Shown: piece by piece, positions 11,331-36,570 of the stretch
Layout: every line of letters starts with the position of its first letter
How positions within the stretch are numbered: position 1 is the stretch's first letter
NCBI GenBank assembly: GCA_018902385.1
Contig: JABSSW010000002.1
Location: 1,302,001 to 1,366,000 of the forward strand
Length of the DNA stretch: 64,000 nucleotides
Direction of reading: 5' to 3'
DNA from: Physcia stellaris
Taxonomy: Eukaryota; Ascomycota; Lecanoromycetes; Caliciales; Physciaceae
Position numbers and translations under genes: made by a program
Notes under the pieces: model-generated
What the model saw: the letters and a program-made list of their open reading frames with translations, nothing else
Told to the model about the DNA's origin: nothing
The model's database searches: none

Positions 11331-11485
11331 ATTTTGTTTTGAACCTTCTCGACTGCAATATTATCCAAGAAAAGATTCAACTAGTCAAAATTTCGTGTAT
11401 TTTCTGAAAGATTGAACGAAATTTTGAAATAACGCAATATCGATTTTGGCAAATAGGATTAACATTGCACAATTTTTGAAATTAT

Positions 11486-11690
11486 TGAAAGAATCATGAA
11501 TGACTTTCATTCTATTGTTCTGAATTTCGTTGTTTCTTGTAACATACATGCAGTGAAAGCACAAGAAGTGTGCGAATGTCAAGACACTAATTTCAACAAA
11601 AACGCATTAATATCTTTTTCGTCAAATTATATTAATTGAATCTTGATTGCAGCATTCGCGAAACACATTTGCGAAAATTGTATTTCAACA
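11486..11690 (-). repeat. LTR of element A (left on plus strand)
   Basis: 205 bp, with ends TGAAAG... and ...TTTCAACA on the plus strand. It aligns without gaps to 14789-14993. I count 15 transitions and one transversion between the two copies, 14 of the transitions in CpT/ApG context. Confidence 0.8.
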
Positions 11691-13201
11691 CTTTTTCACA
11701 GCAATCGTTTGTGTTTTCTGTTCTGTATTTTAACGAGCTCAATCTGATCAATTTGAAGTTTTCGTGCAAACTTTTTCAGCGATGCGTGTCTTGAAACTTT
11801 CTCAGCGACGTGACTCTTTTAACGATGTGATTTTTTCAACGATACGTTGTTTGAAGCTTTCGAGCAAACTTTTTCAATGTCGAATCATGTATCGATGCGA
11901 AAATTGCAAAAACGAACGAATCGAAATTCGATGATTTATTGATTTCAGATATGACGTAAAGTCGATTTGTAAAACGTGCGATCGAGTGACTGAAAACGTT
12001 CTGAATGTGTTTTCATGAAATGAAGCATCGATGTGAAATCTGATATCTAGAATTGACTAGAAGATACATCATGAAACAAATATCAATTGTTTGAATTCTG
12101 CGATATTGACGAAAGTGCGAATCACATCATAATCTGATAACATTATTGTGAATTTCAGAATTTTCAGATACTTTTTGCGACATCAATGATTCGATATCTA
12201 TGCAATTTGATTGTAAAAATTTCATAAAATATGTCAGATGATCGAGAAATCGATAAGAAAAACAATGCATCGAATGCGCGACATGCATTGCGAACATACA
12301 TCGATGCAAAGAATGCAGAATCGAGCTTTTTTGATTTGACTAAAATTTGTCAGAGAATCAAATCGATTAATATGCGAAAAAATCAGATATTTTCAACATT
12401 ATTTGTTTTTCTTGATCGAGTTCTTGCTCTGCAAAATCGAGTATGTAATAACTGCATAATACGCTTTTTCGAAGCGATATTACGTGACTTCATCGAGTAT
12501 GTAATGATTTCATAATACGTTTCTTCGAAACGATACTATCTGAACGTGAGCATCTTGATCAATACACTTTTTCGAAGTTGTATTGTCTAATAGATTGCTT
12601 TTTTTCTTTTAACAACTGTTCGTACAGTACGTCAAATACGCTTTTTCGAGACTGTATTGTCAGAATTGTACTTCTTCTCTCTTTTTCGTATTTATCGGGC
12701 GACTAAGTCTCAAAAATAGTAAAAAAAGAAACAATGATTAGTCGTGTTAAATCAAGACGAAATCACAACAAAAATAAGTCTCTATCATATTCGTTAAACA
12801 ATAAAACAAATAAACAAAGCATACAGCAACTTTTAAAGCTTCTTCAGATCTTGATAGAACGAAAAAGACGAAACATCGAATTCATTAAACAACAACAACT
12901 TTTAGTTCTTTCAAGTCGATCAACGATTAATAAAGAAAACGAACGAACAAAACAACAAACAACAACATGTTAACTTTTTCAAAATAGTGATTTTTTCAAG
13001 AAGAAATCAATATTTTTTCAAAACAGAATGAAGAGAAACGAAACGTCAATAACGCATTCTCATGAATATTTCATTGTTTTCAACTCTGAAAACATTTGAC
13101 ACGACTCAATCGATAAATCGATAAATGACAAAACGCTTTTGACAATGTCTGCAAACAGAAAAAAAACGAAAAATCATTGAAAATCGAAAAATAAAACGAA
13201 A

Positions 13202-14458
13202 TCAACGAGATCGAATAGATGAAATCGAATGAAAAATCGAAAATTGACGCGAAACGTTTTCGCGAACATGTGTTGACTCAAATGCTTCGAATTTGATCGA
13301 TTTGAAGACAGATGTGATCATCGCATGAAAATATGACGTAATGCGCGTTTGTATGAAATCATTGCTTCTAAAATTGCATTTGTCAAGATTGCGTGAAAAC
13401 AGCGATTTGTTTTGACTTGATTGCAAATTAAATGAATTCGACTTTTCAACGAACATGCGATACAGATCGTTCACGATTAAATAAAGTCTCGATGATGTAG
13501 AAATTCGAAACGAAATAAACGAACAAACAATGTTTGCATTTTTCAACGACTTGCACATCGATTTGAATGTCGCAATCGTGAAACGCGAAAATTTCGACGC
13601 AACAGATCGTGAGACGATTTCTGTTCAAAATATCGATTTTTTTGATGTTTCAATCGACAAAAAAAGAAGTTCTGAAGAAGATGTAGTCAATGACTCGATT
13701 ATCAATTTCGATGAAATAGAAAGTGACAAAATAAATGACGAAACAAACGATTTTGAAATTTGCGCAAAGAACGAAACAATTGACTTCGATTTTTTCGCAT
13801 GTCGAGTGCGAATATGTTCATGAAACTTGATGTTGTTATCGAATTTGATTTTGCAACGTTTGCACGTATATTTTTCGATTCGTTTCGCTGTTATGCGAAT
13901 TTTTTCTTGTTGTTTCATCAATTTTTTCGTTTTCTGTTTGATTTTGCTTTTTATTTGCAATTCGTGCTTGCGCAAATGATAAGTCTTTTGAATTCTTTTC
14001 GTCTGTTGATATCAATTGCATTTCGAAACATTAATAAAATTTGAATTGATGTGTTCGTGATATAGAAATCGAAAATTTTGCGTTCTCGAATCATTCGCGA
14101 ATAGACAGATGCAAAACAAAAACGATCAAAAAAAAATATCAAGTTTCGAAAAAGTAACGATAAAAAATGCGACGACGAATTCGAAAATGATCGCAAAAAT
14201 AAAAAATGAACTCACATGTTCAACAAATTGCTGAACGAACGTCGATTTCGATGATACGTTTTCTGAACGCTCGCGTACAATTTCTGATTCGAAAATCGAA
14301 AGAAATAAAAATTCTGATGACGAAAAAGTAAATTCGACTACTCGTGACGATGACGCAAAAAATAAGAAAAAAAACGCAATCTTCGAGTTCTTGCATACAA
14401 TTTCTGATACAAACATCGAGAAAATTGATAATTCTGATGAAAATGACATGTTCGTCAA
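13202..14458 (-). pseudogene. C2H2 zinc-finger protein carried by element A, mutated
   Basis: Minus-strand open pieces follow one another: a Ser-rich part (14458-14126), a basic part with a C2H2 finger (13975-13625; YTCKRCKIKF...HEHIRTRH), and a C-terminal part with RLYLIVNDLYRMF (13558-13202). The finger pattern is C-x2-C-x12-H-x4-H. I recall similar finger plus YLTVDDLFRMF-type proteins as abundant in some ascomycete genomes, but cannot check this. Frame changes between the pieces show it is broken or contains introns. The function in the element is unknown; the finger could bind element DNA. Confidence 0.6.
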
Positions 14459-14788
14459 TTTTGACTGCGCTAAAGTGAAAATTCGCGTGAAAATTCGATA
14501 TCGTAAAATAAATAAATAGATCGAAAACTGATCGTTTCGAAAAGAATTCGTAAATAAATGTTATCGATGTAATTGAGAACGTATTAAAATACTGAATGCT
14601 GTCAATGCAATTGAGTCAATTCTGATCTGATAAAATTGAATATTTTCAATGAAATTGATTACTGTTGAAATATTGCAAAATCTGCTGTATTGTTCGACGA
14701 TTAAATATTATTGTTAACGTGTTCTGTCATGTTGCTGTAATTGATACTAAATGTAACGAAAATTGTTAATTCGATTTTCATAATCTAT

Positions 14789-14993
14789 TGAAAAAATCAT
14801 GAATGATTATCATTTTATTGCTCTGAATTTCGTTGTTTCTTGTAACATACATGCAATGAAAACACAAAAAATGTGCGAATGTCAAGACACTAATTTCAAC
14901 AAAAACGCATTAGTATTTTTTTCGTCAAATTATATTAATTGAATTTTGATTGCAATATTCGCGAAACACATTTGCGAAGACTGTATTTCAACA
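14789..14993 (-). repeat. LTR of element A (right on plus strand)
   Basis: 205 bp, the partner of 11486-11690. It also matches both LTRs of element B, which makes four copies of one LTR family within 7.3 kb. Confidence 0.8.
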
Positions 14994-15502
14994 AAAATGA
15001 AATTATTCGATTTTTTGACATGAAATAAACAATATCATGTTTTCAAATTTATCGTCAAAACGTATTTTAATCAATCAAATTTTTGATGTATGCATTGTGA
15101 TTTTTGTACAATTTATGCGCGAAATTGTGAAAAAATTATATCATGATGTTGTTGATTTTCACACGTTTAATAATCAAGTTTTATGATTATCTCAATATGA
15201 AAAAAACAGTTTGAATAATTTCGTTTCAAATATTCGACAATATCATACTATTTTCATTTTTTTCAATATAAAGTTCAATCGATTGCTGTTTTTGAACATT
15301 TTTTGAATCAATTGTACAATTCATCGCATTGAATTTCAGAAAAAAGCGAAAAAATATTATTGATTTAAACGTTGACGAAATAGTGTAAACACATTGTTAT
15401 TTCATCTCGTGTATTATACAATATCATATTATTACTATTTTTTTCAATACAAAGTTCAACTAGTTGTTATTATTGAAAATGTTTCTATTCAATTGTACAT
15501 AT
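14994..15502. other. AT-rich spacer between elements A and B
   Basis: No coding sequence recognised. It has two related segments around 15232-15300 and 15415-15500 (both with AATATCATA...TTTTTTTCAATA and AAAGTTCAA). A segment near 15318-15395 resembles the sequence right of element B at 18805-18880. Element B therefore seems to have landed inside an older repeat. Confidence 0.5.
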
Positions 15503-15708
15503 TGAAAGAATCATGAATGATTATCATTCTATTGCTTTGAATCTCGTTATTCTAAATAAGTTACATGCAGATGAGAGCACAAGAAATGTGCGAATGTCAA
15601 GACATTAATTTCAACAAAAACGCATTAATTTTTCTTTCGTCAAATTATATCAATTGAATTTTGATTGCAGCATTTGCACAACACATCTGCGAAAATTGTA
15701 TTTCAACA
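15503..15708 (-). repeat. LTR of element B (left on plus strand)
   Basis: 206 bp, related to the other three LTR copies. It pairs with 18597-18804. Confidence 0.8.
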
Positions 15709-16924
15709 TTTTTTCACAACAATCGCTTGTGTCATTTGCTTTGTATTTTAACGAGTTCAGTTTGAAACTTTCGTGCAAACTTTCTCGACGACGAATTCTG
15801 AAATTCTTTTCAACGATGTAACTTTTTCAACGATGTATTGTCTGAAACTTTCGAGCAAGTTTTCTCAATGACGTAAATCTTGTAGAGTTAAATCATACAT
15901 CGATGCGAAAACTGCAAAAACGAACGATTCGAAATTCGATAATTTATTGACTTCAAATATGACGTAAGATCGAATTGTAAAACGTGCGATCGAGCATCTG
16001 AAAAATTGCGATCGTGTTTTGAATCTTCATGAGATGAAACATCGATGCGAAAATTGATATCTGAAATTGAGTAAAAAATACATCGTGAAACAAGTATTTT
16101 ATGTCTGAATTTTGCGATGACGAACGAGAATGCAAATCACATCATGTAACATCATTGTGAATTTCAAAATTCTCAGATATTTCTTGCGACATCAATGAGT
16201 CGATTTCTATGCAATTTGACTGTAAAAAGTTCATAAAATATGTCGATGCAATGTCAAAAGTTGAAAATGATCGAGAAATCGTTCAAAAAGATAATGCATC
16301 GAATGTGCGAAACATGCATCGATGCGAAAAATGCAAAATCGAACGTTTTTGATTTGACTAAATTCTGTCAAAAAATCAAATCGATTAGTATGCGAAAAAA
16401 TCAGATATTTTCAACATTATTTGTTCTTTTTAATCGAATTTTTGTTCTGCAAAATCGAATATGTAATGATTGCATAATACGTTTTTTCGAAGCGATATTA
16501 TTCGAACGTGAACATCTTGATCAATACATTTCTTCGAAGTTGTACTGTCTAGTAGATTGCTTTTTCTCTTTTAACAATTGTACGTACAGTACGTCAAATA
16601 CGACGATTGTATTCATTTTTTTCTTTTCGTATTTATCGGACGACTAGATTTCAAAAATCATAGAAAAAGAGACAATTGATTAGTCGTGTTAAATCAAAAC
16701 GAAATCACAACAAAAATAAATCTTTATCATATTCGTGAAACAAAATAAACAAAACATACAACAACTTTTAATTCTCTCAAATCGATCAACGAATAACAAA
16801 GAAAATGAACGAACAAAACAAACAAACAAACAACATGTTTTAACTTTTTCAAAATAGTGACTTCAAGAAGATCAATACTTTTTCAAAATAAAACGAGAAG
16901 AAACAAAATTTCAATAACGTTGTT

Positions 16925-18407
16925 TCATGAATATTTCATTGTTTTCAATTTTGAAAACATTTGACATGATTCAATCGATAAATCGATAAATGACAAAACG
17001 TTTTTGACAATGTTTGCAAACAGAAAATAAACGCGAAAATGTCGAAAAAAAAAAACGCATCGAAGAAAAAAAAAATCGAAAAATTCGCGAAAATGATATG
17101 CGAGTCGATTGTTTGATCGATGCATATATTGTTGAAAATGTTTCGAATTTGATCGTTTTGAAAGCAAATGAAATCGTCGCATGAAAATATGACGTAATGC
17201 GATTTTGTACGAAATCAAATTTGCAATTGTTTTTAAAATTGCATTTGTCAAAATCGCGCGAAAACAACGACTTGTTATGACGTGATTGCAAATCAAATGA
17301 ATTCGATTTCTCAACGAACATGCGAAACAAATCGTTCACGATCAAATAAAGTCTCGATGATATAAACGTTCGAAACGAAATAGACGAACAAACAACGTTT
17401 GCATTTTTCGAGAATTTGCACATCGATTTGAATGTCGCAATCGAAAAACGAGAAAATTTCGATGCAATGATTGATCGTGAAACGATTTCTGTTCAAAATA
17501 TCGATTTTCTTGATGTTGCAATCGACAAGAATTTTGAAAAAATTTCGAAAAAAAATGAAATCAATGACTCGACTATCAATTTCGATGATGTAAAAAATGA
17601 CGAAATGATCGATTAAAACGACGAAACAAAAAATGACGAAATCATCGATTGAAATGACGTAAAAAATGAAACAATTGATTGTTGAGCAAATTTCGACTTT
17701 TTCGCATGTCGAATGCGAATATGTTCGTGAAATTTGATGTTGTTGTTAAATTTGATCGAATGTTTGCAACGTTTGCACGTAAATTTTTCTGCTCGTTTCT
17801 TGATCAAACGAATTTTTTTTTGTTGTTTCAATAACTTTTTCGTTTTTTGTTTGATTTTGTTTTTCATTTGCAACTCGTGCTTACGCAAATGATAAATCTT
17901 TTGTGTTTTTTTGATTTGCACGTATCAATTGCATTTTAAAGTCTTGACGTTCTCATTCAAATGCATGTTGTAAAGCGTCTTGAGATTTTGCGTCATGAGA
18001 TGATTTTCAAATACGTGATCGCAAAAAACAAACGAAAAAGATAAAAAATCAGATGCGAAAATGAAAAATGCATTTTCTGAATGCTTGCATACGATTTCTG
18101 ATGCACGAATCGAAAAAGACGAGAATTTTGATGACGAAAAAGTAAATTCGACTATTCGTGACGATGACGCAAAAAATAAAAAAAAAAACGCAATTTTCGA
18201 GTTCTTGCGTACAATTTCTGATACAAAACTCGAGAAAGTTGATAATTTTGATGAAAATGACATGATCGTCAAATCGAATGTAAATGTTGAAGTCGTCGAT
18301 TTGACTGAATGATAAATAAACGAATTCGCGAAAAATTCGTAAAGTGATTCGATAGATAAATAAAATGCTCGAAAGTTGATTTGTATCAAAATATTGAATG
18401 TTGTCAA
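16925..18407 (-). pseudogene. C2H2 zinc-finger protein carried by element B, mutated
   Basis: The order is the same as in element A. A Ser-rich N-terminal part (18407-17925) precedes a basic part with the finger FTCKRCKHSIKF...HEHIRIRH (17921-17613). The C-terminal part has RLYLIVNDLFRMF (17423-16971), and a second Cys pair CKHCQKRF lies near its end. Parts overlap in different frames, so the gene is broken or spliced. Comparison of the A and B copies could recover the ancestral frame. Confidence 0.6.
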
Positions 18408-18596
18408 TGCAATTGAGTCGATTTTTGATTTGACAAGACTGAATATTTCGAAAACTGATTATTGTTGAAATATTGCAAATCGATTGCTGTATTGTTCGAC
18501 GATTAGATATTACGTGTTCATGCGTGTTTTTGCATGTTGTTGCTGTAATTGATATTAAATGTAACGAAAATTGCTAATTCGATTCTCATAATTTAT

Positions 18597-18804
18597 TAAA
18601 AAATGCATGAGTGATTATCATTTTATTGTTTTGAATTTCGTTATTTTAAATAAGTTACATGCAGATGAAAACACAAAAAATGTGCGATTGTCAAAACATT
18701 AATTTCAACAAAAAACGCATTAGTTTTTTTTTTCGTCAAATTATATCAATTGAATTTTGATTGCAACATTTGCACAGCACATTTGCGAAAATTGTATTTC
18801 AACA
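18597..18804 (-). repeat. LTR of element B (right on plus strand)
   Basis: 208 bp. Against 15503-15708 I count 16 transitions (15 at CpT/ApG, one at TpG), about three transversions and small run-length indels. Confidence 0.78.
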
Positions 18805-18933
18805 ATACAATTTATTCTATTGAATTTCAAAACGAAACAAAGAAATGACATCGACTTAAATATTAATGAAATAATGAAAACATAACATACAATTGAAATT
18901 TTGATAATCAATTTCACAAAAATGATCATAATT

Positions 18934-19112
18934 TCATGTATGTATATTTTTCATGTTTATGTTTATATCGATCATCAATTGTGCGTTCGAAAAATTCGAT
19001 TTTTTCTTTGTTGACGTTGACATTGACGAAAAATTTTGTGATTCAGAATTTCAAGAATTTTTCATTTGAATTTTTTCATTGTATTTGTTCACGTTGACAT
19101 CAAGATTCGCAA
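18934..19112 (-). pseudogene. C-terminal tail of the DUF6589-like gene, separated by the gypsy insertion
   Basis: If the gypsy element and one copy of the CGCAA duplication are taken as inserted sequence, the minus frame ending ...LFKNDVA at the right edge continues in phase here with NLDVNVNKYNEKIQMKNS. It then meets a TGA, goes on through a Ser/Thr/Lys-rich tail, and ends at 18934. The tail is polar and probably disordered. Confidence 0.55.
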
Positions 19113-19349
19113 TGTTACGAACATGTCTGACAAATAAATCTGACAAATAGATAAACGATATGATAAATGATTGAACAAATAAATTTAAATCGAATTATGT
19201 TTTAATTTTTTGACGAAATTAACGTGATTTGAAATTTGACGTTCGCACATTGTTTACAATTTCATCATTTTGTACATATTTGTTTTTGCAAACTTATTGT
19301 TTTCGTCTAATTAGTCAATAATACGTTTATTCAAGCACGATTCATGATA
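19113..19349 (+). repeat. 5' LTR of the gypsy element
   Basis: 237 bp, aligned without gaps to the 3' LTR at 25585-25821. The copies differ at 12 positions, all transitions in CpT/ApG context. Confidence 0.95.
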
Positions 19350-19580
19350 TTACAATAAGTTTTTAATTTTTATCGCTCGTCGAGATACGCGAACGTTCAA
19401 AAATAAAATTTCAAATCGATCAAATTCTTTTGACGAGACAAACGACGAAAAGTTTTGTTGATCAAACAAATGATTTGAAAATTCTTTTGACGAAACAACG
19501 ACGAAATTTTCGACGATAAAAAACGAAAATTGATTCGATTAATTTTTTTTTTTTTTATCATTTTCAATTTTTCATTTTCA

Positions 19581-21050
19581 ATTATGATTCGAAATCATCA
19601 CGAAACAATTTTTTTCGAATTTTCTATTTCGATGAAACAACGTCTCAAAACGTTACGCGTCAACGTGAATCGTATGTTGCATAAAATTAACGACAACTTT
19701 TTTGACGAAAATTTCGCTGATCAATTCAAACGTCGTCGATTTGTGTCAACGATCGATTTCATAAAAATGAAAAATGAAAAAATCATTCATTTTTTGAATA
19801 TCGTCATTATCGATCAATTGAAATGATGAGTCAATCATAAAATCGTCGACTTTTTAAAAGAATTTGATCGATTACGCATCGATCGTGACAATTATTTGAA
19901 CGTTTTGACTCAATATCAGAATTTATACAATATTGTCAACGTCGATCGTGACGAATTGATCAATACGAATGTCAAATTAAATGAGATTCGTCGAGAATTG
20001 AATGTCTTGAAAAACGAATACGAAAAACAACGTGATTTATTTCTGATCAAACAAAAAAATTACATTTTTTTGAAAAAAGATCACGACGTTTTGCTGATCA
20101 AAATTCGCGATCGTGCACGAAATTTTGACGTCGACGATGAAAAAAACGACGATAAAATCAACGTAATTAATTTTTTTCAAAAGAACAAACGACGTTTCAA
20201 AACACATTCAAATTTTTTTAAATTTATCGATGAAATAAAATTCATCTGACGTGTTTGAAAAACAAAAATACACGATAAAATGACGATCAACGCTGATCAT
20301 TACGACACGAACATGATCGCAATCATTATTGTGATTGATTGAATTGAAAATGATGTCGATAATCACATACAATCGATTCGTGATATTGATATGAATCATT
20401 TCAAAATTTGACATATGATGTTGAAATTCTTGAACATTATTTACGAAAATTCTGATTTCAAACGCAATATGCGTAATCAATTTCGAACATTGATTATGAA
20501 TATTCAAAACTTTCAATTTTTTTATTTCATTTTTTTTCGCTTTAGCAATTCAATTGATTATAACGAAGTCATCAAAATCGAAAAGTTGATGAACAAAATT
20601 TTCTGAAATCTAAAAAAAACGATGAATGTATATTCACGTGAATTCATCACGTTCGATGAAATTCGAATCATTTTGCAACAAATATACAATCGACAATCGA
20701 ATTTTCGAAAAAAAAAAATCGCGACACGTCAACAACGTTCTGAATTGTTTCAATTCAAATCAATTTTTGTCGTTTCGATCTCGATGTTCTTTACGAAATT
20801 TGTCATTTCGACTTTTTTCGTGAAATTTACAATTTATTTTCATTTCAACGTTGAAATCAAGATTCGTAATTCGATGATCGACAAACTAATCGTCACGAAC
20901 AAATGTTTCACATGTGACGAATTAAATCACGTTTGAAAAAAATGTTCGAACGATCACAAACATCAAAAACGTCATTGACATAAAATGCAAATATCGTACA
21001 TGAATTTAATCGTCGAGTCGAGTGATTTTGATTCGAAAAACTAATAATTC
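19581..21050 (+). pseudogene. gypsy gag, mutated
   Basis: Consecutive plus-strand pieces (19530-19826, 19896-20249, 20415-20606, 20622-20936) are interrupted by TGA stops. Near 20904-20950 the C-x2-C-x4-H-x4-C zinc knuckle is visible as CFTCDELNHV, a TGA codon, then KKC. The nucleocapsid knuckle packages element RNA in active relatives. The N-terminal limit is uncertain. Confidence 0.7.
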
Positions 21051-21079
21051 ACATCAAAAACGCGATTGATGAATGTTTA

Positions 21080-21500
21080 AAAATTTTTTTTATTCACAAC
21101 GATAATTTGTTTGACTTTTTTATCAAACGATTTCTAATCATCAATTGTACGTTATCATTCAACGATAATAGACATAAATTAAAAATTTTAATAAACATTG
21201 ATGCAATTGATTATGCATTCATTAATAGAAAAATCGCGCAATTTGTATGCAACATGCTAAACATGAAATTCGTATTTTTATTGAAATCGAAATCATTGAC
21301 TGAATTCGACGATCGTCAAATTTCATCAATAACTCATGTCATATATTTTAAATTAACGATAAAATTGCATTTCGAATTGATCGTTTTTCTGTTAATCATC
21401 GATTTGAATAATCATTCGATAATTTTAAAAAAATCGTGAATGAACAAACATGAAATCATATTGAACATGATTTACGATAAATTGATTTTCAAATCGTCTA
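21080..21500 (+). pseudogene. gypsy aspartic protease, mutated
   Basis: The frame 21107-21439 has the retropepsin layout: LKILINIDAIDYAFI, where active enzymes have a D-[ST]-G-A catalytic turn; FDDRQISSITHV; and a hydrophobic strand ending before a TGA. The catalytic turn has lost its Gly, consistent with G-to-A mutation. Confidence 0.65.
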
Positions 21501-22269
21501 AATGCAATCATCATGACAATATATTCAGTCAAGTTGTTCAAATTCGACGTTTGAAAATTCTCAAATCAAATCGTCGATGAAATGTATTTAACTGACGTCG
21601 TGATATTTTATTATCGCAAAAAAACGACTCGAAACATATAACGATAATAGAATTTCGATATATCATTTTGTTTCGTTTCAACGTCAAGTTTTTGCTTTTT
21701 ACAATTGAGAATGAGTCAAATGTATTCGATTCGAAATGTTTCGAATGTTCAATTCATTCGAACGTCGATGACGATGACGAGTCGTCAATCATCGAATCAA
21801 AAAATTCAAAAATTGATATCACAACAATTACGAAGACGACATTTATCAAAAAAAAAAACTTGAAAAAACAACGCAACAAACGTTGAAAAATTAAAAAACA
21901 ACAATTCGAAATTTTTTCATCATCGAAATTGAACTCAGACGATTCAATGAATATCGCGATAATTGATGCAATTTTCTTCTGCTTACTCGTCGATTTCAAA
22001 AATAAAAAGCAAAAAGTGCAATGTTTTTTCATTACGATCAATCAAATCGATTTCGCGCTCAAAACATTGCGAACAAATTCTGAATCGTTGAAAATTGTTG
22101 TCATGATCAAAAAAATTCTGAAACATGAACAAATCAAATCGATTCTTGAACGCATAATGAAAAAAATATTCAAATATTTCAAACATTTGTCAAAAATATT
22201 CGATTTTCAAAAGACAATTGAATTGTCATCGCATCGATTTTACGATCACAAAATCGAACTTTTAAGCGA

Positions 22270-22950
22270 TAACAATTCATTGTTTCGAAACAAAATATAT
22301 TTTTTGTTCGAATTCAAACTTCAAAAGCTCAAGAAATATTTGAAAGATAATTTTCAGAAAAACTTTATCGTACTCAATCAAATTGCATACGTTTCGTTCG
22401 TTTTATTTGCAATCAAATCAAACGATCAATTACGTTTATGTGTGAATTATCGACGATTTAATCACATCACGAAACGCAATCGATATTTCATTTTCTTGAT
22501 CGAAAAGATTCTAGTCAAAATGCAAAATTGCAAATATTTGATCAAATTGAATATTATATCGATTTTCAACAAGTTTCGAATGAATGAAAAAAATGAAAAA
22601 TTCATCACGTTCGTTATTTTCATGAAATTATACAAATATCGAGTATCATTTTTCGAATTGATCAACGAATTCGCGAGTTGACAACATTACATGAACGATT
22701 TGCTATTCAACTTTTTGAACGATTTTTGTCAAATCTATTTAAATGATATTTTTATTTACAGCAAATTCAAAAAAGAACACATCGTTCACGTGCGTAAGAT
22801 GCTGAAAAAATTCAAAAAAGTCGAATTACAAATGAATATTGAGAAATGCGAATTTTTCAAGAAAAAAATGACATTTCTGAACGTCATATTATCGATGAAT
22901 GATTTTCGCATGAATTCGAAAAAGATAAAAATCATTGTCAATTGAAAACG
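22270..22950 (+). pseudogene. gypsy reverse transcriptase, mutated
   Basis: Recognisable RT blocks: LRLCVNYRRFNHIT near 22430, YLIKLNIISIFNKFRM near 22540, FCQIYLNDIFIYS near 22728-22770 (the active-site YLDD reads YLND), and IEKCEFFKKKMTFL near 22840. A TGA breaks the frame at 22679-22681 and again near 22943. The loss of one catalytic Asp by G-to-A fits the mutation pattern of the block. Confidence 0.85.
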
Positions 22951-23119
22951 CTTTACAAATTTGAAAAAAATGCAAATTTTCGTGAATTTCGTCAATTTTT
23001 ACAGACGATTCATTCGTAACTTCTCGAAGAAAATTCGAGTTCTCATTCGAATGATCAAAAAGTTCGTGAATTTCGAATGAATTGTTGAAATCGAAAAAAT
23101 CTTCAATCTTCTCAAGAAA

Positions 23120-23560
23120 ACGATGACGAAAATTTTCATATTACGACATTACGATCGAATCAAACAGATCATTTTGAAAATTGACTTTTCTGATTACGTC
23201 AATGCGAAAATGTTATTTCAATACGACGACGAAAAAGTTCTGCATTTTGTTGTCTTTTATAGTCGCAACATGATTTCAGTCGAATGCAATTACGAAATTT
23301 ACGACAAAAAGTTGTTGATCATTATTCGTTGTTTAAAACATTGACGTTCTGAACTTGAAAACATTGAAAAATCGATCAAGATTTTCATCGATCACAAAAG
23401 TTTGAAAATTTTCATGACGTCAAAAAAATTAACTTTTCGTCAAGTTCGTTGAGCAAAAATTCTTTCGAAATTCAATATTGTCATTCAGTTTCAATTCGAA
23501 ACTCAAAACGTTAAAGCAGATGTTTTGATTCGTATGTTTAAATCACGATCAAAAAACGAT
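23120..23560 (+). pseudogene. gypsy RNase H, mutated
   Basis: It contains LKIDFSDYVNAKMLFQ, VVFYSRNMISVECNYEIYD, then KLLIIIRCLKH followed by TGA, and IFIDHKSLKIFMTSKKLTF. These are the catalytic-Asp and NYEIYDKELLA-type blocks of Ty3/gypsy RNase H. The KADVLIRM end block lies near 23520. Confidence 0.8.
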
Positions 23561-23679
23561 ACTGACGAGCGACATCAATATCGAAAGCAAATATTGTTTA
23601 TCTCGAAACGACTCGAAATTCACGCGATGAAATTTGACGAATCTATTTACGAATGAATTTTGACTGTCAACAGAATTGA

Positions 23680-24880
23680 CGATAATTGCACGATTTATCG
23701 TGAAATCATCGAGCAAAATTTCATTTCAGTGAATGAAATCGATTTACGAAACTGCAATGAAAAAAACGAAACTTTATATCGAAATGATCGACTATGAATA
23801 TTTGTCGATGTTTTTTATTCGTTAATTTTTTCAAAAAAATTCACGAATTTTCGATTTCGAAACATTCAAATTTCAATCGTATGAAAAATTTTATACGTCG
23901 CGATTATTATTGATTTAACATGCGCAAATTCGTTCGTCGATACGTTCGTAATTGTTATGAATATTAACGTACGAAAATTTTCAAAAATCGAAAAAATGAT
24001 TTATTTACATTTTTGATCATTTTTTTGCAACGTTAAATCGACATATTTATGAATTTTATCATCGAATTGTTTAACGTTCACGATCACAACGTCATTTGCA
24101 CGATAATTGACAAATTTAATAAAAAACGTCATTACGTGTTTTGCATCGTCGACGACGAAAATACAAATGCGAAAATCACAATCAAAATATTTATCAATTA
24201 CGTATTTCGTACGCATGAATTATTTTTTTTTATAACGTCAAATCGAAAATTTCAATTCATATCGTTCGTTTGACAAGCATTTTGCAAAATTCTCGACATC
24301 AAATGTAAGTTTTTTATCGTTTTTCATTCAGAAATCGATGAGCAAATCGAGAAAATCAATCAAAATATCGAGAAACAATTGCGACAGTACTGGAATTACA
24401 TGCAAAACGATTGAGACGTTTAATTGTTCATGATCGAATTTGCAAACAACAACGCGATATTTGCAACAACAAAATTGTCATCATTTTTCATCAATAAGAG
24501 CTTTCATTTTCGCATGAATTTTTCATCAGATTTTATTTCGTATGTTACAACGAGAAAGCGACTTTTGATCGTCAAAACAGAAAATATTATCGACACAATG
24601 CAAAATATTCTCAACTACGTACGAAATCATGCAAAAATGATTCAAAAACGTATGACAATTCAAATCAACAAACATCGAAAAGTCGTGAAATACGTCGAAA
24701 GAAATTTCGTTTTTTTGAATCGACGAAACATCAAAACGATCAAGTCATTTGACAAACTTGATGACAAAAAATTAAAATCGTACAAAATGCTAAAACGTAT
24801 GAGCAATTTTTATCGATTCGAATTATCAAAAATCATGCGAATTTACGATGTGTTTCATTGTTGATTTTTTCGCAAAAATT
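23680..24880 (+). pseudogene. gypsy integrase, mutated
   Basis: Parts of the core are visible at 24049-24273 (VICTIIDKFNKKRHYV, then TIKIFINYVFRTH and FITSNRKFQF). The post-core region spans 24424-24864 and ends with KLDDKKLKSYKMLKRM and ELSKIMRIYDVFH. Several TGA stops fall at expected Trp positions. The N-terminal zinc-binding half is poorly preserved. Confidence 0.72.
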
Positions 24881-24939
24881 TTCGTGATTTTTTCGAAAAT
24901 CAAATTAACGAATTTCTCGATTTCGTCATAGTCAACGAA

Positions 24940-25115
24940 AATCTCGAATGAAAAATGAACGATATTTTGAAATCTCGATATCATTACAATCGTTTTCAAT
25001 ATCGTGTCAATTGATCGAGTTGATTTCATGATCGAACGTGATATTATGTCGATAACGAAAAATTCGATAATGTTCGCGACGTGATAAACGACTTTCATCG
25101 TACTCATTTCACGAC
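24940..25115 (+). pseudogene. gypsy chromodomain-like tail, mutated
   Basis: After a TGA in a likely Trp position, the frame reads KMNDILKSRYHYNRFQYRVN, another TGA, then HDRT, a TGA, YYVDNEKFDNVRDVINDFHR. The order of aromatic residues matches the chromodomain-type extension of gypsy integrases. In relatives this module reads histone marks to steer insertion. Confidence 0.6.
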
Positions 25116-25584
25116 GACAGATTCAGAATTTTTCAAAACGTTGATTTCAATATTTCAAATCGTCGTCAGCGAATTCGATTTCTCAACAAGTCGTCGTCGT
25201 TTTCGAAAAAAAATCGTCATGCTAACATTAATCGAAACTATTTTCGATTAGCATTTGACGTCACGAATTCAGTTTTTATTCATTTGTTTTTGATTTCACG
25301 ATTTTTATTCAACAATTCAACTTCTATTATCTTTTCGATGTTATTTACAGTCAGAATTTACATCGCATGAAAGATTGAATCGTGTCAAAAACATTTTCAA
25401 AAATTGTCGTCAAGTTTTATCGAACGTTGAAATGACACTAGAATATTAAAAAATAAAAAATGATGATCGTGAAATTTTTGAATTTTGCAATCATACAATT
25501 TGATCAGCAAAATTCTCAACAAGATTTTCAAATTTCGCAACAACAACGAATCGTCGAAACGACGTTCGCGAAAAAGAAAAATAG

Positions 25585-25821
25585 TGTTACGAACATGTTT
25601 GACAGATAAATTTGACAAATAGATAAACGATATGATAAATGATTGAACAGATAAATTTAAATCGAATTATGTTTTAATTCTTTGACGAAATTAGCGTGAT
25701 TTGAAACTTGACGTTCGCACATTGTTTACAATTTCATCATTTTGTACATATTTGTTTCTGCAGACTTATTGTCTTCGTCTAATTAATCAATAATACGTTT
25801 ATTCAAGCACGACTCATGATA
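25585..25821 (+). repeat. 3' LTR of the gypsy element
   Basis: 237 bp, followed directly by the CGCAA target duplication. Divergence from the 5' LTR is about 5 percent and consists only of transitions. Confidence 0.95.
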
Positions 25822-25826
25822 CGCAA

Positions 25827-28244
25827 CGTCGTTTTTGAACAAATTTGCGACGACGTAAATCGAAAATTCACGTTTTTTCATATAACGCATGTCGCGTTTT
25901 AACAGATTTGCAATCATTGTTTGCAAATTTTCGATTATCGATTTGATTGAATGATTGTTTCGATAATAACGATGCAGAAAGTCATGAATTTTCAGACGAA
26001 ATTGCAAGTTATATAATATGATTAACGCAAAATCTTTAAACAAATCGTCGAAATTTTTGATGAAATTTCGTCGAGTTGTCAGATTTTCTTTGAAAATTTC
26101 ATTGAGATATTTCAATAATCGATTCGTTTCAAAGCATTTGTTATTTGAATTTTGCAAATTGACAAAACTGTTGATCAACATTGTTTTTTGTAATATTACG
26201 TTCGATGTTTTTGAACAATACAAATGTATAAATCGAATTAATTTCGTCGCGTAATTGAAAGTATTTTTTTTCGAAACTTGAAAGAGAACGCAAATATTTC
26301 GTAAAACATGTTTTAACAATTCAATATCATCGTATTTAATGAAATGTCGCAATTGAAAATATATTTTCATATGTTTAATAAAACGAAAATGATTTTCGAA
26401 CATTTCGTTTTCGATCACGAGAACAGACTGAATTTGAAAATTGAAAAAATGAACAATGACAATCAATTCATTCACGAGATTTTCATAATTCGAAGATTTT
26501 AATCGTTTGAATCATTTTTCGAACTTGAAAACAAACAATATGAAAACGAATTTTCATTGTCGATTGAAAACAAATCGTATGAAAACAAATTTTTCTCGTC
26601 GATTGTTGCACAAATGCATCGTTACAACGAAAATTTTCGTTTGATAGAAATGAATCAAAAACGTTTTCAATTTAATAAAATTTTGATCGATGTTTACGTT
26701 ATTGCGTTTTCAAACATCAACAGCAAATTGCAATGTGAATTCATTTATCGATTTAAAATCATTTCAATGATTTTTATGAATTAATTTCAAAAAATTCAAA
26801 CGCAAATGTCAAAAATTCAAATTCGAAATCATTCATTTTCGAAAATCATATGATTTTTCGACGTCACGTCGACAATTTTGCATTGTCAATATTCGCAATA
26901 TAATTTTCAAATCATCATAATAAAACAGAAAAATATCGTTTCATATTGAATCGTTGAAATTTTTTTTCAATTGTCGTTTTTCAATGTTTTCGTGAATTAA
27001 TATATTGTTTTTCGTCGTGTTTTCGTTTTGTTGCACGAAAACTAAAAAATGCGATTTGATTTTACTATATGCAATTCGTTTGATTTTTGACATTTTCATC
27101 AATTTTTTACATTCGTCGAGTTTTTTTTCCGAAAATTTTTTGAAAAATGTTGTTTTCAGATTTTCATGAACGAAATGTCGACGATTTTGAACAATGATAA
27201 ATAAACAATAACGAAAATCAAATATTGCGAAACAAATTTATTTGATGAAATAACTTTTTCGTGTTTGAATTGATCACAACAATGTTTTGCATTCGTATTT
27301 TGTGATTCGATCGTTACATGTTTTGTCGTAAATTTTCATTTGAAATCATAATGATTTGAAATTGAAAAACGATAATGATATCGCGTTGAATTTTTCGATT
27401 TTTTATTTTTTCGACGAATTTGTGATTTACAAAATCGAAATTGTCATAAGATTTCGCTTGTTTTTCATTAAAAATGTTACGACAAATTTCATTTTTTTTC
27501 AATACGATTAAATGTTTGATCAAACTTTGCGTCGTGTTATAACAAACACAAATGTTGAAAATAAACAATATGTCAATTATTTTTTTTTTGATTTTTGAAT
27601 TTATCAAATATAACGTCAACGTTTTGATCAAGTCATTACATCGAAAATTTTGCATAAAAAACAACAATATCGACATTCACATGATTTGTTTGATGTTCAT
27701 GAATATAAATTGTGAAAACGAATAATTCGATGATTTAACAACGAAATTCAAAAATTTCATCAAAAAAAATGTTGTATTGCGTACGACATCAACAAAAAAT
27801 TTCAATTTATCGATGAAATTCAAAATTTGAATATTGAAATCGAAAAACTTTCAACGAAAACGTTCATTGTTCGTCAATTCGATCAGTTCTTTTCGAATTT
27901 GTCGTTGATATTTTGCTTTTTCGTCGACTTTTAACATGTTGTTTCAATTTTGCATTTCAAATCGAAATAAAGAATTGTTTTTTTTTTCTCGTTCAACATT
28001 TTTTGATATGCGAATTTTCGAAATTGTAATCAGTATTTGCGATATCGTTTTTTGAATGATGTTTCGTCAAAACACGCAACAAATGTTGCATGTTTAGATT
28101 TTTTTTTTTTTTCATCATGTTCACGACGAATTGCAATTTGAATTTTTGTGTAATGAATGATTTACGATTCGATTTTCGAAAACGTTTGCGTTTGAATTGA
28201 AAAAAAATTCGAAAATCAATCGATGTTTGAATATTTGAATTCAT
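25827..28244 (-). pseudogene. DUF6589-like gene, N-terminal and central part, mutated
   Basis: Minus-strand pieces in order: 28244-27993 (basic N-terminus with a hydrophobic stretch), 27676-27314 (includes CVCYNTTQSLIKHLIVL and YDNFDFVNHKF, which resemble the self-association and YDNIN-type blocks of DUF6589 proteins), and 26475-25827 (TKLIRFIHLYCS, NSFVNLQNSNNKCFETN, LHRYYRNNHS). The family is common in repeated fungal genes; its function is not known to me. The identification rests on pattern memory. The 3' end of the frame runs into the gypsy LTR and resumes left of the element. Confidence 0.55.
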
Positions 28245-28654
28245 GTTAAAAATTTGAACTTGCGCAATAAAAAATTGTAATAATGAAAACGAAATGTCTT
28301 AAAAATCGTAAACGTGATGAAAACAAGACGAAAAATTGCGATATGAAAAAAATTCGATTTCGTTTTAACGTGAAATTTGATATCAAATCAAATTCATGAA
28401 TTTGATTTTTAGAACGCGAATTTGTTCGCATACAACAAGTTGTTATTTGATCGATTGACAATTTTCTAATGATGTTAATTTTAATTTAAATTAATTGTAC
28501 AATGACGATTATGTTATCAATAAAATCATTTGACGTTGTTTCGTATGAAAATGACGATTTGAAATATCTGATATTGTTTGATTTGAAAAAAAGAATGTTT
28601 ATATAAACACATGTCAAAATTTACATCATCAATATTTTTTCTGATTTTCAAAAC

Positions 28655-29000
28655 ACGAATCAAAATAAATTAATAGTTCAGTTCACGATGTCATTTGCGC
28701 TTTTTAACGTTAAAACAAAAATTGTACAAATGCAATGAATCAGACATATTTATAGCGAATTCTTATATCACGTATGTTAGATGATATGAATAAACTCGTA
28801 TGACTTTTTACGAAAAACGAAAATTGTTGAAATCAAAATGTTGTTGTTTTTTCGAAACGTAAATCGAAATAAATTAATTATTAAATTCACGATGTCATTT
28901 GAGCTGCTTGATGTTAATGAAAAAATTGTACAAATGCAATGTATTAAACATATTTACAATAAATTTTTATATCATGTATGTTAAATCATACGAACAAACG
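28655..29000. repeat. Diverged direct repeat, two copies about 200 bp apart
   Basis: Copy 1 (about 28655-28800) and copy 2 (about 28855-29000) share AATAAATTAAT, TTCACGATGTCATTTG, AATTGTACAAATGCAATG and ATATTTA...TTATATCA in the same order. Confidence 0.6.
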
Positions 29001-30006
29001 TTTAACGATTTGCATAAAATCTTGATTGTATTTTTTGCGTACACATAAATTTTCATTTCAATATCATTTTTGAAATTTTCATTCATCGATTTTTGTTCGT
29101 CTGATTCATGTTTGAACGTTTTTAATGTTTGTTTTCTCGTTCGACTTGTCAATGATTCGTATTTTTGATGAAAAATGAATAAAAACGACGTGCTCGTATT
29201 GACGAATGAAAAAAAATAAAATCGTGACAAAATAAAAACGATGTGATCGAAAAAATTGAAAAAAAAAATAATAAACTGAAAAAAACGATGAATAAAAAAA
29301 ATAAAAAAACGAAAAAAATGTATCGACAAATTTCTTGAATTTTGTTGAAAAAAAAAAAAAAAAAAAGAAAAAAGAAAAAAAAAAAATGAAAAAAAAAAAA
29401 CGCGTAAAATTTCTCGAATGACGCATCGTGTTTATATATGCAAATAAAAAATCAATATTTTAATGAAACGAATCTGATTGAATGATTTAACGATTAAAAT
29501 TGTAAATAAATATTTTTCATTCATGATCGTTTCATTCATGATTGCGAATTCGAATCGCGTGTGCAATGATAAATATTTTCAAAATTTATTTCTGTGATAA
29601 ATTCGAAAATTTTGATTCAATGAAACAATATTCACTTCTGAACACATGACAGAATTTCGAAATAATTGAATTGATAATTTGAAATTTCGATTAACATATG
29701 AAATATCACAAAAAACATCATTTTTTTGATTGTTGTGACAATGTTGAAAATCAGAATTTCGACGCGCAAAATTCGAAATCGAAAAAAAAAATATTCGAAA
29801 ATACTTGATTGAATAATTGTAAATGCGAAAAAATAAAAAATGAAAATGAAAAAAAAAAATAATGATAAGATAAATTTGATATAATTCGAAATCGAAATCG
29901 AAATCGAAAATCATGACAAAATAAAAATGAATTGAATGAAAAATGAAAAAAATCAAAACGAAAAATCATGAAAAAATAAAAGCGATGTGATCGTATGAAC
30001 GAAAAA

Positions 30007-30127
30007 TTTGAAAAAGAAAAAATTGAAAAAAGAAAAATTGAAAAAAGAAAAATTGAAAAAGAAAAAGTTGAAAAAGAAAAAATTGAAAAAAAAAAAATTA
30101 AAAAAGAAAAAATTGAAAAAGAAAAAT
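30007..30127. repeat. Microsatellite-like GAAAAA/TTGAAAAA array
   Basis: About eight imperfect units of 13-16 bp of the form AAAAGAAAAATTG. It explains the Lys- and Phe-rich frames on both strands here; these are not genes. Confidence 0.8.
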
Positions 30128-32679
30128 AAACTTCGCAAAAGAAAAAATTTTGTACAATTGTTAATCGATTTTTCGATGATTGAAATTTGATATCATTCAT
30201 TTCGTCGTGTTGAAAAAAAGAATTCGTTTCATCGTGACGAAAAATCTTGATCATTTCTCGACGTATGTGAAATTTACGACGTGATAAAAATTTCAAAAAC
30301 GCGTTGAATCGTGTCAAAAACACGTTTTTGAAATTCAAAATTTCGTATTACAATTCATCGTCGTATTGATGAAAAAGACATCATGTAAAAAAAAATGAAA
30401 ATGATGAAAAAAAATTAAAAAATAAAAAGAAAACGAGAAATTAAACGACGAAACGAAATCAATTTCGTCATATTTTCAATTTCAATATCACAATTTCACG
30501 ATCGTGAAACATTTTTGCGCATAATGAAAACAATTGTTTGAATTACTAAATCATTCATTCATTTAAACGACTAATCGAATGAAATTTTGAAACAAAATTT
30601 TCGATTTGTGTACGATTAAAAGTCGTAAATGATCGATCAATTCGACGTCGTTTCATATATTTTATTTTCAACAATAATCGAACAACAAAAATATATTTCT
30701 GTTATCACATTTAGAATTTCGTATATTTGCGAAAAAAATTCATTTGATTTTATATTTCGTATCATGATTAACGTTATCAACAAAACGTTAATTTAATGCA
30801 TGCATTTTTGCTTTTGTACAATTTAATTTTTTCAATATTTAAACAATAAACTTGTTCGTATATTTCTTGCATCTCTTTCGAGATTTTTGCATTTCTGACG
30901 TATAAACAAAAACAAACAGTTTACAATTTCGTGAACAAAAACAATTTACGAAAACGAATTTTCAACATCGAAACATGCGAATGATAAATAGAATAAAGAT
31001 AAAAAAAAAATTGAAAATGTATTTTTTCGACTTTATTTTTTTTCAGATTTCGCGTTTCATTCGCATCGTTTGATTGTTGAAAAAACTTGATATAAATTAC
31101 AAAATAATATTTTACAATCGCGAAAAAAACATGATTGTTTCAAAAAAGTTCAAGAAAATTCATAATCAAACAACATTGCAAAAGAATTTTTTTGCAATTT
31201 CGTATATAACGAAAAATGCAATGAAATCGACACACAACATGATTATTTTCGAAACAGAAATTCAATTGTGTTCAATTTCATTTCAAATCACAATTTCATT
31301 TCATTATTTTTCGTTTTCGTCGTTTGATTCGACATTTTTCATTTGAATGTTCGAAAACGATGTTTTCGTCAACGTTTCATACATTTTTTTTTGTTTGATT
31401 TTTTCGATCAACACAATTTTCAACATTTTTTTTTCGTTTTCATTCAGAAACGTTTGATATTTTCTTTTATAAATCAAAAAAGTGAATTTTTTTCAAATTT
31501 TTTTAAAAAACACATTTACAATTTTTTTTGCGACGCGAAAACGACGCGATTTTGAAATTCAAATTGTAAATGTTTTTGTAAAACGAAAATTCGAAATTTC
31601 TGTTTTCTCAATTGATACGAAAACAACGATTTGAGATTCGATAAAATCGAATCGTTCGATTTCGAAATTTTCAAACTCGAAATCGTCGAAATTGTCGTCG
31701 TGTTCAAAATGAATTTTTGTGTTCATATTCATAAATTCGTTTTCATTCTGAAACAAAAATAATGATTCATTTGTGTCGATATTGAAATCGATTTCTTGCA
31801 ATCGCTCGCGATTTGTCGTAAATTGATTGATGAACAATTTTTGACGATTTGATTGTCGTTGCGAAAAACACGTTTCGAAATTCGACAATGTTATTTTCAC
31901 AACATTGATACGAATTCGCGTGCTTTTGTTATGCACAAAAAAATTTTTAATTTTGAAAAAAATCGAAAACATCACTCTTGCGATCGCAAACGATATTTGA
32001 ATGTCAATTGAATTTAAAATCGAATCAAATCAAATACAAATTTGAAATTGAAAAATTGCATATTCAACGAACATTGATTTTTTTTATGTATGTACGTGAA
32101 ATTGTCGCACGTTTCAAGTTAATTTCTGATTTGACGACATAAACGAAAAATCAATTGAATTTGATTTTGCTTAATTTGAACGCAACGAATGCACGTTTGA
32201 ATTGCATTTCGATCAATCGCTTAAAAATTTGTTAAACGATCGATTTTTTATCAAAAAAAAAGCATGTTTATTTGAATGATTAAAACGTCGAACTGTTACG
32301 ATTGATAAATGTTGTCGAAATCGATACGATTAATAAAATGCAAAAAAACGATATGTTTGTCGAAAACATTCGTAAATTGTGATCGCTTCATTGATGTTAT
32401 ACGAATTTTGAATTGATATATCATCATCGTCAATCAAATTATCATGATGATTTCAAAATTCAATTCACGACATCGAAATCAACGTCGATGACATCGTCAT
32501 CGAACACGTCTGAATACACATTAGAAATTGCATATAATTTCGAATATCAATGATACATTTACAAATGATCAAAAAATTCGCGCTGCGCGACATGATTGTG
32601 ATGTTGAAACGAAAAAAAAAAAAAAATCGAAATTCAAATAAATAAAGATAATTTTGCAAACGACGTTAATGATAAATAT

Positions 32680-36545: not shown

Positions 36546-36570
36546 GCGAAAATAAATACGATTATTTATC

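What the first reader, a model, noticed from the sequence alone, without database searches (positions are those of the whole stretch)
19113..25821. Repeat mutation at CpT instead of CpA: LTR pairs show a non-classical RIP-like signature
Aligned by hand, the two 237-bp gypsy LTRs differ at 12 positions, and all 12 are C/T before T or G/A after A. The LTR pairs of elements A and B add 15 and 16 transitions, of which 14 and 15 have the same context. In total 41 of 43 transitions are CpT/ApG and 2 are CpA/TpG, although CpA is plentiful in these LTRs. Classical RIP in ascomycetes prefers CpA. A C-to-T process that prefers a 3' pyrimidine would mean a different methyltransferase or deaminase specificity, or a different pathway.
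Basis: partly seen in the sequence, partly recalled or inferred. Interest (0 to 1): 0.93.

Follow-up and report, generated by a model that had tools for sequence, protein, structure and literature searches.

The report
Lichen fungus mutates repeats at CpC/CpT
In this lichen fungus, repeated DNA has been rewritten by a C-to-T mutation process that strikes cytosines before C or T and spares those before A or G, roughly the reverse of the preference known for fungal repeat-induced mutation, so standard tests miss it.

Summary
The gypsy LTRs (19113-19349, 25585-25821; duplication CGCAA on both sides) differ at 12 sites, all C/T before T; LTR pairs A and B are nearly as described. "CpT instead of CpA" is the tail of something stronger. 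The AT-rich block 11501-36500 has lost CpC (observed/expected 0.01), kept CpA and CpG, and partly lost CpT. Against an unmutated copy of the same element, 17 degraded copies show C-to-T at CpC 95.3%, CpT 77.3%, CpA 4.9%, CpG 2.8%, with no clear 5'-base effect. A degraded rDNA copy gives the same order. The genome is Physcia stellaris, with motif-intact DIM-2, RID and a second RID-like methyltransferase. Best reading: a RIP-like repeat mutator with CpY (C > T) specificity. Direction and context are shown; enzyme, timing and homology trigger are inferred. CpA-based RIP indices of 48 island windows. My searches listed no CpC-first RIP. New variant of a known kind.

The parts
11501..36500 (.). AT-rich, CpC-free block (GC about 28%); edges sharp to about 500 bases
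   Evidence: 500-base bins: CC+GG 43 in 11001-11500, 0-2 per bin from 11501 to 36500, 36 in 36501-37000; o/e CC 0.01, CT 0.35, CA 1.28, CG 2.96, TA 0.40 for 11400-36200
11483..11690 (.). element A, left LTR
   Evidence: direct repeat; 14 CpT, 1 CpA, 1 transversion vs its partner
14786..14993 (.). element A, right LTR
15500..15708 (.). element B, left LTR
   Evidence: direct repeat; 14 CpT, 1 CpA, 3 transversions vs its partner in the ungapped parts
18594..18804 (.). element B, right LTR
19108..19112 (+). target-site duplication CGCAA (left)
19113..19349 (+). gypsy left LTR; 40 scored matches genome-wide, a lower bound
21023..24052 (+). decayed pol frame (start mod 3 = 2): 16 of 16 in-frame stops are TGA in this range, which was chosen after looking; the next stop in that frame, at 24104, is TAA
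21887..22681 (+). open stretch of the pol frame (264 aa) overlapping the reverse transcriptase region; no Gly, Pro or Trp
   Evidence: RVT_1 match at window 22421-22888
22103..23088 (+). segment compared with an unmutated copy of the same element: C-to-T at CpC 104/109, CpT 108/144, CpA 7/121, CpG 7/112
25585..25821 (+). gypsy right LTR
25822..25826 (+). target-site duplication CGCAA (right)

Best explanation
Physcia stellaris has a RIP-like defence that recognises dispersed repeated DNA and turns C into T on both strands where the next base is a pyrimidine: CpC fastest, CpT about three times slower, CpA and CpG nearly spared. Shown here: the direction (C to T), the context, near-independence from the 5' base, action on both strands, presence in the AT-rich islands that hold the repeats and absence from gene space, and one copy in which about 300 bases were left unmutated on one strand only. 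Inferred: that the process is premeiotic and triggered by homology like RIP (whether unique DNA inside islands is hit was not tested); that it is carried out by a C5-methyltransferase (the RID orthologue, the extra RID-like paralogue, or DIM-2) that selects the 3' neighbour, with conversion to T in the same pathway. Consequences that follow and were checked: Pro, Gly and Trp codons vanish, premature stops are mostly TGA, and decayed copies stop at a GC of about 23% or more because CpA and CpG stay.
For: Polarised: 17 degraded copies vs unmutated copy L101, CpC 1749/1835, CpT 1870/2419, CpA 99/2035, CpG 55/1933; T-to-C 62 of 8534 A/T sites; 57 transversions. rDNA relic vs Rfam consensus at conserved sites with a conserved neighbour: CpC 26/28, CpT 16/32, CpA 0/24, CpG 0/34. 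Fraction mutated by 5' base: ACC 0.97, CCC 0.98, GCC 0.93, TCC 0.95; ACT 0.78, CCT 0.84, GCT 0.71, TCT 0.76. Least degraded copy: 146 CpY changes against 8 others in about 1 kb. Copy L103: plus strand 66/94 CpY mutated before position 695 and 0/41 after, minus strand 48/77 and 32/42. Elsewhere in the genome: 23 of 30 LTR loci have CC o/e 0.02 or less; 5 of 40 spread 2-kb stretches have 0-6 CC+GG, and 22 of 24 low-GC 500-base windows 3 or fewer; stops inside 150 reverse-transcriptase matches are 250 TGA, 33 TAA, 3 TAG. RID, DIM-2 and a second class-I enzyme keep motifs I, IV, VI, VIII and X (motif names recalled). Eight 5S rRNA matches of about 120 bases keep their CC and GG; three carry other changes.
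Against: No cross, methylome or mutant was examined, so timing, homology dependence and enzyme are not shown. Two unmutated gypsy copies (L101, L102, 96% alike) coexist, so not every repeat is hit. CpA sites do change slowly: up to 13% in the most degraded copy, 1 CpA in each of pairs A and B, and in 30 LTR copies 23 of 39 CpA columns vary, so a weaker second process or ancestral variation is present. Seven of 30 LTR loci keep CC at o/e 0.22-0.97; I did not check whether these are flanks of genes. None of 8 strand tests for clustering of mutated CpT sites in 4 copies reached p 0.05 (lowest 0.07); the L103 tract was seen by eye in that output and tested afterwards. The 17 copies are 17 of the 38 degraded matches listed.
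Confidence: 0.75

Rival explanations
1. Passive decay: heterochromatic repeats carry 5mC in CpY context (for example laid down by DIM-2) and lose it by slow spontaneous deamination over many vegetative generations, without an active mutator.
For: DIM-2 is present; a review states that Neurospora DIM-2 prefers CpT (PMC13297926, passages); more degraded copies tend to be more degraded at CpT and CpA as well; no general clustering of mutated sites.
Against: CpC in the least degraded copy was hit at a hazard of 1.56 per site while all other substitutions there amount to under 1% of about 1 kb, far above what I recall for 5mC deamination elsewhere. The 40 scored matches jump from 96% to 84% identity with none between. 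The one-strand tract in L103 is not expected from independent site decay.
Confidence: 0.14
2. A sequence-specific DNA cytosine deaminase (AID/APOBEC-like or other) edits repeats or their cDNA.
For: C-to-T on both strands; 11 PF00383 matches exist in the genome, of a family that rings in 12 of 14 control genomes.
Against: No APOBEC_N match, though that search reads exon by exon and no control genome reached its cut-off. Known AID/APOBEC enzymes read the 5' base (recalled), and here it hardly matters. cDNA editing would give one strand only; both are hit, and an rDNA relic is hit too.
Confidence: 0.05
3. Sequencing artefact: methylated CpY cytosines miscalled as T by Nanopore in repeats that short reads could not polish.
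For: The assembly is a Nanopore plus Illumina hybrid (PMC7513301, passages).
Against: Homologous proteins from other records show the same loss: in 30 near hits 0 of 412 cells keep Pro and 0 of 193 keep Gly; their organism and sequencing method are not given, so this is indirect. Copies differ in degree (CpT 41-95%), and unmutated repeats assemble with normal CC. I had no reads to check.
Confidence: 0.03
4. Ultraviolet damage at dipyrimidines, concentrated in heterochromatin.
For: Lichens are sun-exposed; CpC and CpT are dipyrimidines.
Against: UV should equally favour TpC with any 3' base; TCA and TCG are kept (30/702 and 32/864 changed). Gene space is untouched.
Confidence: 0.01

Closest known systems
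Repeat-induced point mutation (RIP), Neurospora crassa type
   Same: C-to-T in dispersed repeats on both strands; gene space and short 5S genes spared; a RID orthologue present; degraded rDNA copies as in other ascomycetes (PMC5555474, passages)
   Different: Classical RIP prefers CpA; here CpA 4.9% and CpG 2.8% against CpC 95.3% and CpT 77.3%; TpA/ApT 0.40 and (CpA+TpG)/(ApC+GpT) 1.41, the opposite of RIP
CpT-biased RIP reported for Botrytis, Sclerotinia and Magnaporthe (Amselem 2015, PMC4352252, passages), Colletotrichum truncatum (PMC6180176, passages), Anisogramma (PMC10998396, passages), Tad1 of Neurospora (PMC2621366, passages) and as the dominant form in alignments of a survey of RIP-capable fungi (PMC7882544, passage)
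   Same: CpT among the changed contexts in ascomycete transposons, so a CpT signal in alignments is not in itself new
   Different: CpA is also a target in the first four reports (TpA/ApT exceeds 0.89 in C. truncatum and Anisogramma). 'CpC' does not occur in the Amselem and Anisogramma texts; it was not looked for in C. truncatum. Some of these CpT calls may be second-context readings after CpA is exhausted, as CpT here is after CpC (my inference)
CpG-type repeat mutation (basidiomycetes, Tuber; PMC4352252, passages)
   Same: 3'-neighbour-specific C-to-T in transposons
   Different: CpG is the best-kept context here (o/e 2.96 in the island)
Strong RIP in the lichen fungus Cladonia rangiformis (PMC12542154, passages)
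   Same: Lichen fungus with bimodal GC and sharp gene/repeat borders; RID and DIM-2 homologues reported
   Different: Ripped GC about 16%, below the 23-29% of the 15 most degraded of the 17 copies here, so CpA or CpG is probably hit there too (inference); the terms dinucleotide, CpA, CpT, TpA and RIP index do not occur in that text

Membership tests
RIP (in the wide sense) | C-to-T transitions on both strands of repeats | tested here: met
RIP (in the wide sense) | gene space (largely unique DNA) spared | tested here: met
   gene-space CC o/e 0.92-1.01 in the window; of 136 500-base windows with GC of 36% or more in 40 spread stretches none has 3 or fewer CC+GG; unique DNA inside islands not tested
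RIP (in the wide sense) | homology- and length-dependent triggering | tested here: inconclusive
   LTR elements and a dispersed rDNA copy hit, eight short 5S copies not; two unmutated gypsy copies persist; no duplication experiment
RIP (in the wide sense) | RID-type methyltransferase present | tested here: met
   L037/P0001 groups with long RID-like proteins of other lichens and Xylona (the name RID is recalled from motif and length, no reference RID was in the set); motifs complete
RIP (in the wide sense) | acts in the premeiotic dikaryon | not testable with these tools
   no progeny data
Classical CpA RIP (Neurospora type) | CpA is the preferred target | tested here: not met
   CpA 99/2035 against CpC 1749/1835; 0 of 48 1-kb windows called by CpA-type indices
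CpG-type repeat mutation | CpG depleted in repeats | tested here: not met
   CpG o/e 2.96; 55/1933 mutated
AID/APOBEC editing | 5'-neighbour preference | tested here: not met
   no APOBEC_N match
UV signature | 5' pyrimidine required, or equal effect at TpC | tested here: not met
   ACC 0.97 and GCC 0.93 mutated as often as TCC 0.95; TCA 30/702

The most novel reading that the evidence does not exclude
A lineage of lichen fungi runs a repeat mutator whose enzyme reads a 3' pyrimidine (C over T), carried by the extra RID-like methyltransferase paralogue (L035 clade) rather than by canonical RID. The mutator would be an independent or re-specified branch of RIP that CpA-based surveys have overlooked in lichen fungi.
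Probability: 0.35. Interest if true: 0.87.

Novelty: new variant of a known kind. Interest (0 to 1): 0.77.

Why it matters
RIP is treated as a CpA process: a 2025 kingdom-wide k-mer study concludes that RIP-like defences share a preference for CpA (PMC12543289, section 9 read), and the usual indices assume it. A fungus with near-complete CpC loss and intact CpA shows that the target context can be swapped almost entirely, gives natural material for finding what sets RIP specificity, and implies that index-based surveys would score such DNA as RIP-free (0 of 48 windows here). It also shows a pitfall: alignment-based 'dominant context' reports the second-best context once the best one is saturated.

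Tried and rejected
Mis-aligned LTRs: rejected (no gaps, 5-bp duplications). AT-richness alone as the cause of CC loss: rejected; of 9 gypsy-like loci fetched from MAG records, the 5 with GC under 35% keep CC o/e 0.98-1.33. First LTR alignment: invalid, 8 minus-strand loci were not turned round; redone. LTR tables of A and B ran past the LTR ends; one search replaces them. First DNMT tree used a strict motif and missed several rows; redone with a looser one on 59 of 193 proteins that have the segment; 36 had none, among them Circinaria, Saccharata, Astrocystis, Nemania, Conoideocrella and Oleoguttula. A claim that the L035 clade is a lichen novelty: weakened, where it falls on the same side as Aspergillus and Penicillium class-I enzymes. 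Viral contigs as a source of related DNA: 126 pattern matches, none confirmed. Site clustering as a general RIP mark: not found. UV, deaminase and cDNA editing: see rivals. I made no structure prediction.

The 120 proteins listed (of 719 found) came from a query that itself lacks Gly, Pro and Trp, so their make-up is biased; 70 of 120 have Gly+Pro+Trp under 1%, 4 have 6% or more, 46 lie between. Their organisms are not named and may include this species. They show existence in other records, not prevalence.
Full report
WHAT WAS CHECKED. The two gypsy LTRs align without gaps over 237 bases and differ at 12 sites, every one C/T before T or G/A after A; CGCAA flanks both ends. Element A gives 14 CpT and 1 CpA, element B 14 CpT and 1 CpA in its ungapped parts. 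In these LTRs CpA is plentiful and unchanged (33 sites in the gypsy pair), as stated.

WHAT THE BLOCK REALLY LOOKS LIKE. The window holds a 25-kb AT-rich block between gene-rich DNA of about 50% GC. Inside it CpC/GpG is practically absent: 8 on both strands in 11400-36200, observed/expected 0.01; CpT/ApG is at 0.35, CpA at 1.28, CpG at 2.96, TpA at 0.40; outside, CpC is at 0.92-1.01. In 500-base bins CC+GG falls from 43 (11001-11500) to 0-2 and returns to 36 in 36501-37000. By triplet, NCC is at 0.000-0.004 of its gene-space frequency; ACT, GCT and TCT are at 0.15-0.48 (CCT, which contains CpC, is at 0). So the context is C before a pyrimidine, with CpC first.

POLARITY. A search with the reverse-transcriptase family gave 150 scored matches, 10 of them without stops. 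Two of these (L101 on C12, L102 on C5) are 49-50% GC, keep CC, and belong to the same element as the window's gypsy: one match of L101 is window 22103-23088. Taking L101 as the less changed state, 17 degraded copies (the window's and L103-L118, 17 of the 38 degraded matches listed) give C-to-T at CpC 1749/1835, CpT 1870/2419, CpA 99/2035, CpG 55/1933, with T-to-C at 62 of 8534 A/T sites and 57 transversions. The least degraded copy is at 79/41/2/2 per cent, the most degraded at 99/95/13/3. Hazards in the former are 1.56, 0.53, 0.017 and 0.017. L102 differs from L101 by 20 C-to-T (9 CpC, 5 CpT, 1 CpA, 5 CpG), 10 T-to-C and 6 transversions. This explains the LTR pairs: once CpC is gone, only CpT still differs; in older pairs CpT is gone too and CpA changes appear (5 CpA against 4 and 3 CpT in two of five pairs).

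A SECOND, INDEPENDENT REFERENCE. A 5.8S search hit a degraded rDNA unit (L046, C41:44399-47552) that Rfam recognises as 18S, 5.8S and 28S. At conserved consensus positions with a conserved neighbour, C-to-T is 26/28 at CpC, 16/32 at CpT, 0/24 at CpA, 0/34 at CpG; with less conserved neighbours included 33/39, 21/41, 1/47 and 3/50. This uses only part of the aligned blocks, those I judged well aligned (394 conserved positions). In other ascomycetes degraded rRNA genes are CpA-dominated (PMC5555474, passages).

GENOME-WIDE. The window lies in a held assembly of 44 Mb in 147 contigs. A methyltransferase on a contig of exactly the length of C5 is recorded as Physcia stellaris, and the published scaffold N50 of 594.86 kb matches C26; the published assembly has 46.57 Mb in 184 scaffolds, so part is not held. 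Of 30 LTR loci, 23 have CC o/e of 0.02 or less and 7 have 0.22-0.97. Of 40 spread 2-kb stretches (places chosen by hand) 5 have 0-6 CC+GG and one is mixed; of 160 500-base windows 24 are below 36% GC, 22 of them with 3 or fewer CC+GG, and no window above that is CpC-free. Across 30 LTR copies CpC is absent, all 34 CpT columns vary, 23 of 39 CpA and 6 of 22 CpG columns vary.

CODING FOSSILS. CpY loss predicts that Pro (CCN), Gly (GGN) and Trp (TGG) disappear and that the only stop the process creates is TGA from TGG. In 28 island ORFs (4154 residues) Gly is 0.00%, Trp 0.00%, Pro 0.02%; the pol frame has 16 of 16 TGA stops from 21023 to 24050, a range chosen after looking, beyond which the frame appears to shift. 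In 150 reverse-transcriptase matches genome-wide the stops are 250 TGA, 33 TAA, 3 TAG; TGA is also the commonest stop in all three frames of this element, 55 of 80 to 79 of 117, so the excess, not the majority, is the point. Proteins of other records show the same: where the unmutated frame has Pro, 30 near hits have Ser 194, Phe 181, Leu 33 and no Pro in 412 cells; where it has Gly, mostly Asp, Asn, Lys or Glu and no Gly in 193; Gln stays in 215 of 271. In 90 farther hits 127 of 1253 Pro and 83 of 640 Gly stay. The query lacked these residues itself and the organisms are not named, so this is proof of existence in other records, not of frequency or of other species.

HOW IT ACTS. The 5' base has little effect and so has the second 3' base, which argues against UV and AID/APOBEC-like enzymes and fits a methyltransferase-like reading of the 3' neighbour. 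Both strands are hit. In copy L103 the plus strand is mutated at 66 of 94 CpY sites up to position 695 and at 0 of 41 beyond, while the minus strand goes on at 48/77 and 32/42 (Fisher p 2e-16 at the best of 160 splits); its sister L104 shares the pattern (phi 0.72) but is mutated there. Recombination with an intact copy would restore both strands, so this looks like an event acting on one strand over about 300 bases (inference from one copy). Unrelated copies share little site pattern (phi at most 0.32; L106/L109 at 0.86 are evidently sisters). Otherwise no clustering: none of 8 strand tests in 4 copies reached p 0.05.

THE MACHINERY. PF00145 finds three genes: DIM-2-like (L036, best solved relative 9bap), a RID orthologue (L037, P0001) and a shorter class-I enzyme (L035, 513 aa when spliced). 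In the careful tree RID sits with long RID-like proteins of other lichens and Xylona; L035 forms a 100/100 clade (15 rows; besides Physcia only Heterodermia is named) on the other side of a 100/98 split, the side of Aspergillus, Penicillium and Cyphellophora enzymes. The names RID, Masc1 and class I are recalled; no reference RID or Masc1 was in the set. All three keep motifs I, IV, VI, VIII and X. Which one sets the context is open: DIM-2 is said to prefer CpT (PMC13297926, passages); L035 is the unusual member.

LITERATURE. Searches for RIP with CpT, CpC, TpC, Lecanoromycetes, lichen and DNMT terms listed no title or abstract on a CpC-first or CpY-only repeat mutator; they cover open PubMed Central papers only. 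I saw passages of 13 papers, and the abstract and section 9 of PMC12543289. CpT as a changed context is in print. The genome paper's passages mention no RIP analysis and the term repeat-induced does not occur in it. CpA-type indices fail here: TpA/ApT 0.404, substrate 1.414, composite -1.01, 0 of 48 windows called (the cut-offs in the script are recalled).

VERDICT. A RIP-like repeat mutator with a swapped target context, CpC > CpT >> CpA, CpG. It works like RIP; it is not classical CpA RIP, whose defining preference was tested and not met.

Noticed in passing
L046 (G000:C41:44399-47552): A degraded 18S-5.8S-28S rDNA unit inside an AT-rich block; the 5.8S search (39 of 2644 candidates scored) gave no other match above the cut-off, so intact rDNA may not be held.
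   Followed up: yes
L103 (G000:C95:26267-27259): One-strand tract: about 300 bases with no plus-strand CpY mutation while the minus strand is mutated; sister copy L104 shares the rest of the pattern.
   Followed up: partly
L101 (G000:C12:60001-61200) and L102 (G000:C5:1166201-1167400): Unmutated copies of the window's gypsy element, 96% alike, persist despite being repeats; L102 lies about 17 kb from a contig end.
   Followed up: partly
window 25786-26511, minus strand: 242-aa open stretch in the island matching DUF6589 (E 5.9e-07) although the DNA is CpC-free.
   Followed up: no
window 60127-60582 and 62627-62942: Tandem repeats of 57 and about 105 bases; the first overlaps a 256-aa open frame on the minus strand and keeps a normal base composition.
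   Followed up: no
G000:C2:1277878-1277996 and C2:1293896-1294014: Two of eight dispersed 5S rRNA matches lie 24 and 8 kb upstream of the window; all eight keep CC and GG.
   Followed up: partly
P0256, P0259, P0290 and others: Database proteins without Gly or Pro but with Trp (18 of 19 Trp cells kept in the near group), probably because the gene caller read decay-made TGA as Trp (inference).
   Followed up: no
G000:C64:178666-179121: Best cytidine-deaminase-family match (PF00383) carries 4 TGA inside; introns or a decayed copy, not resolved.
   Followed up: no
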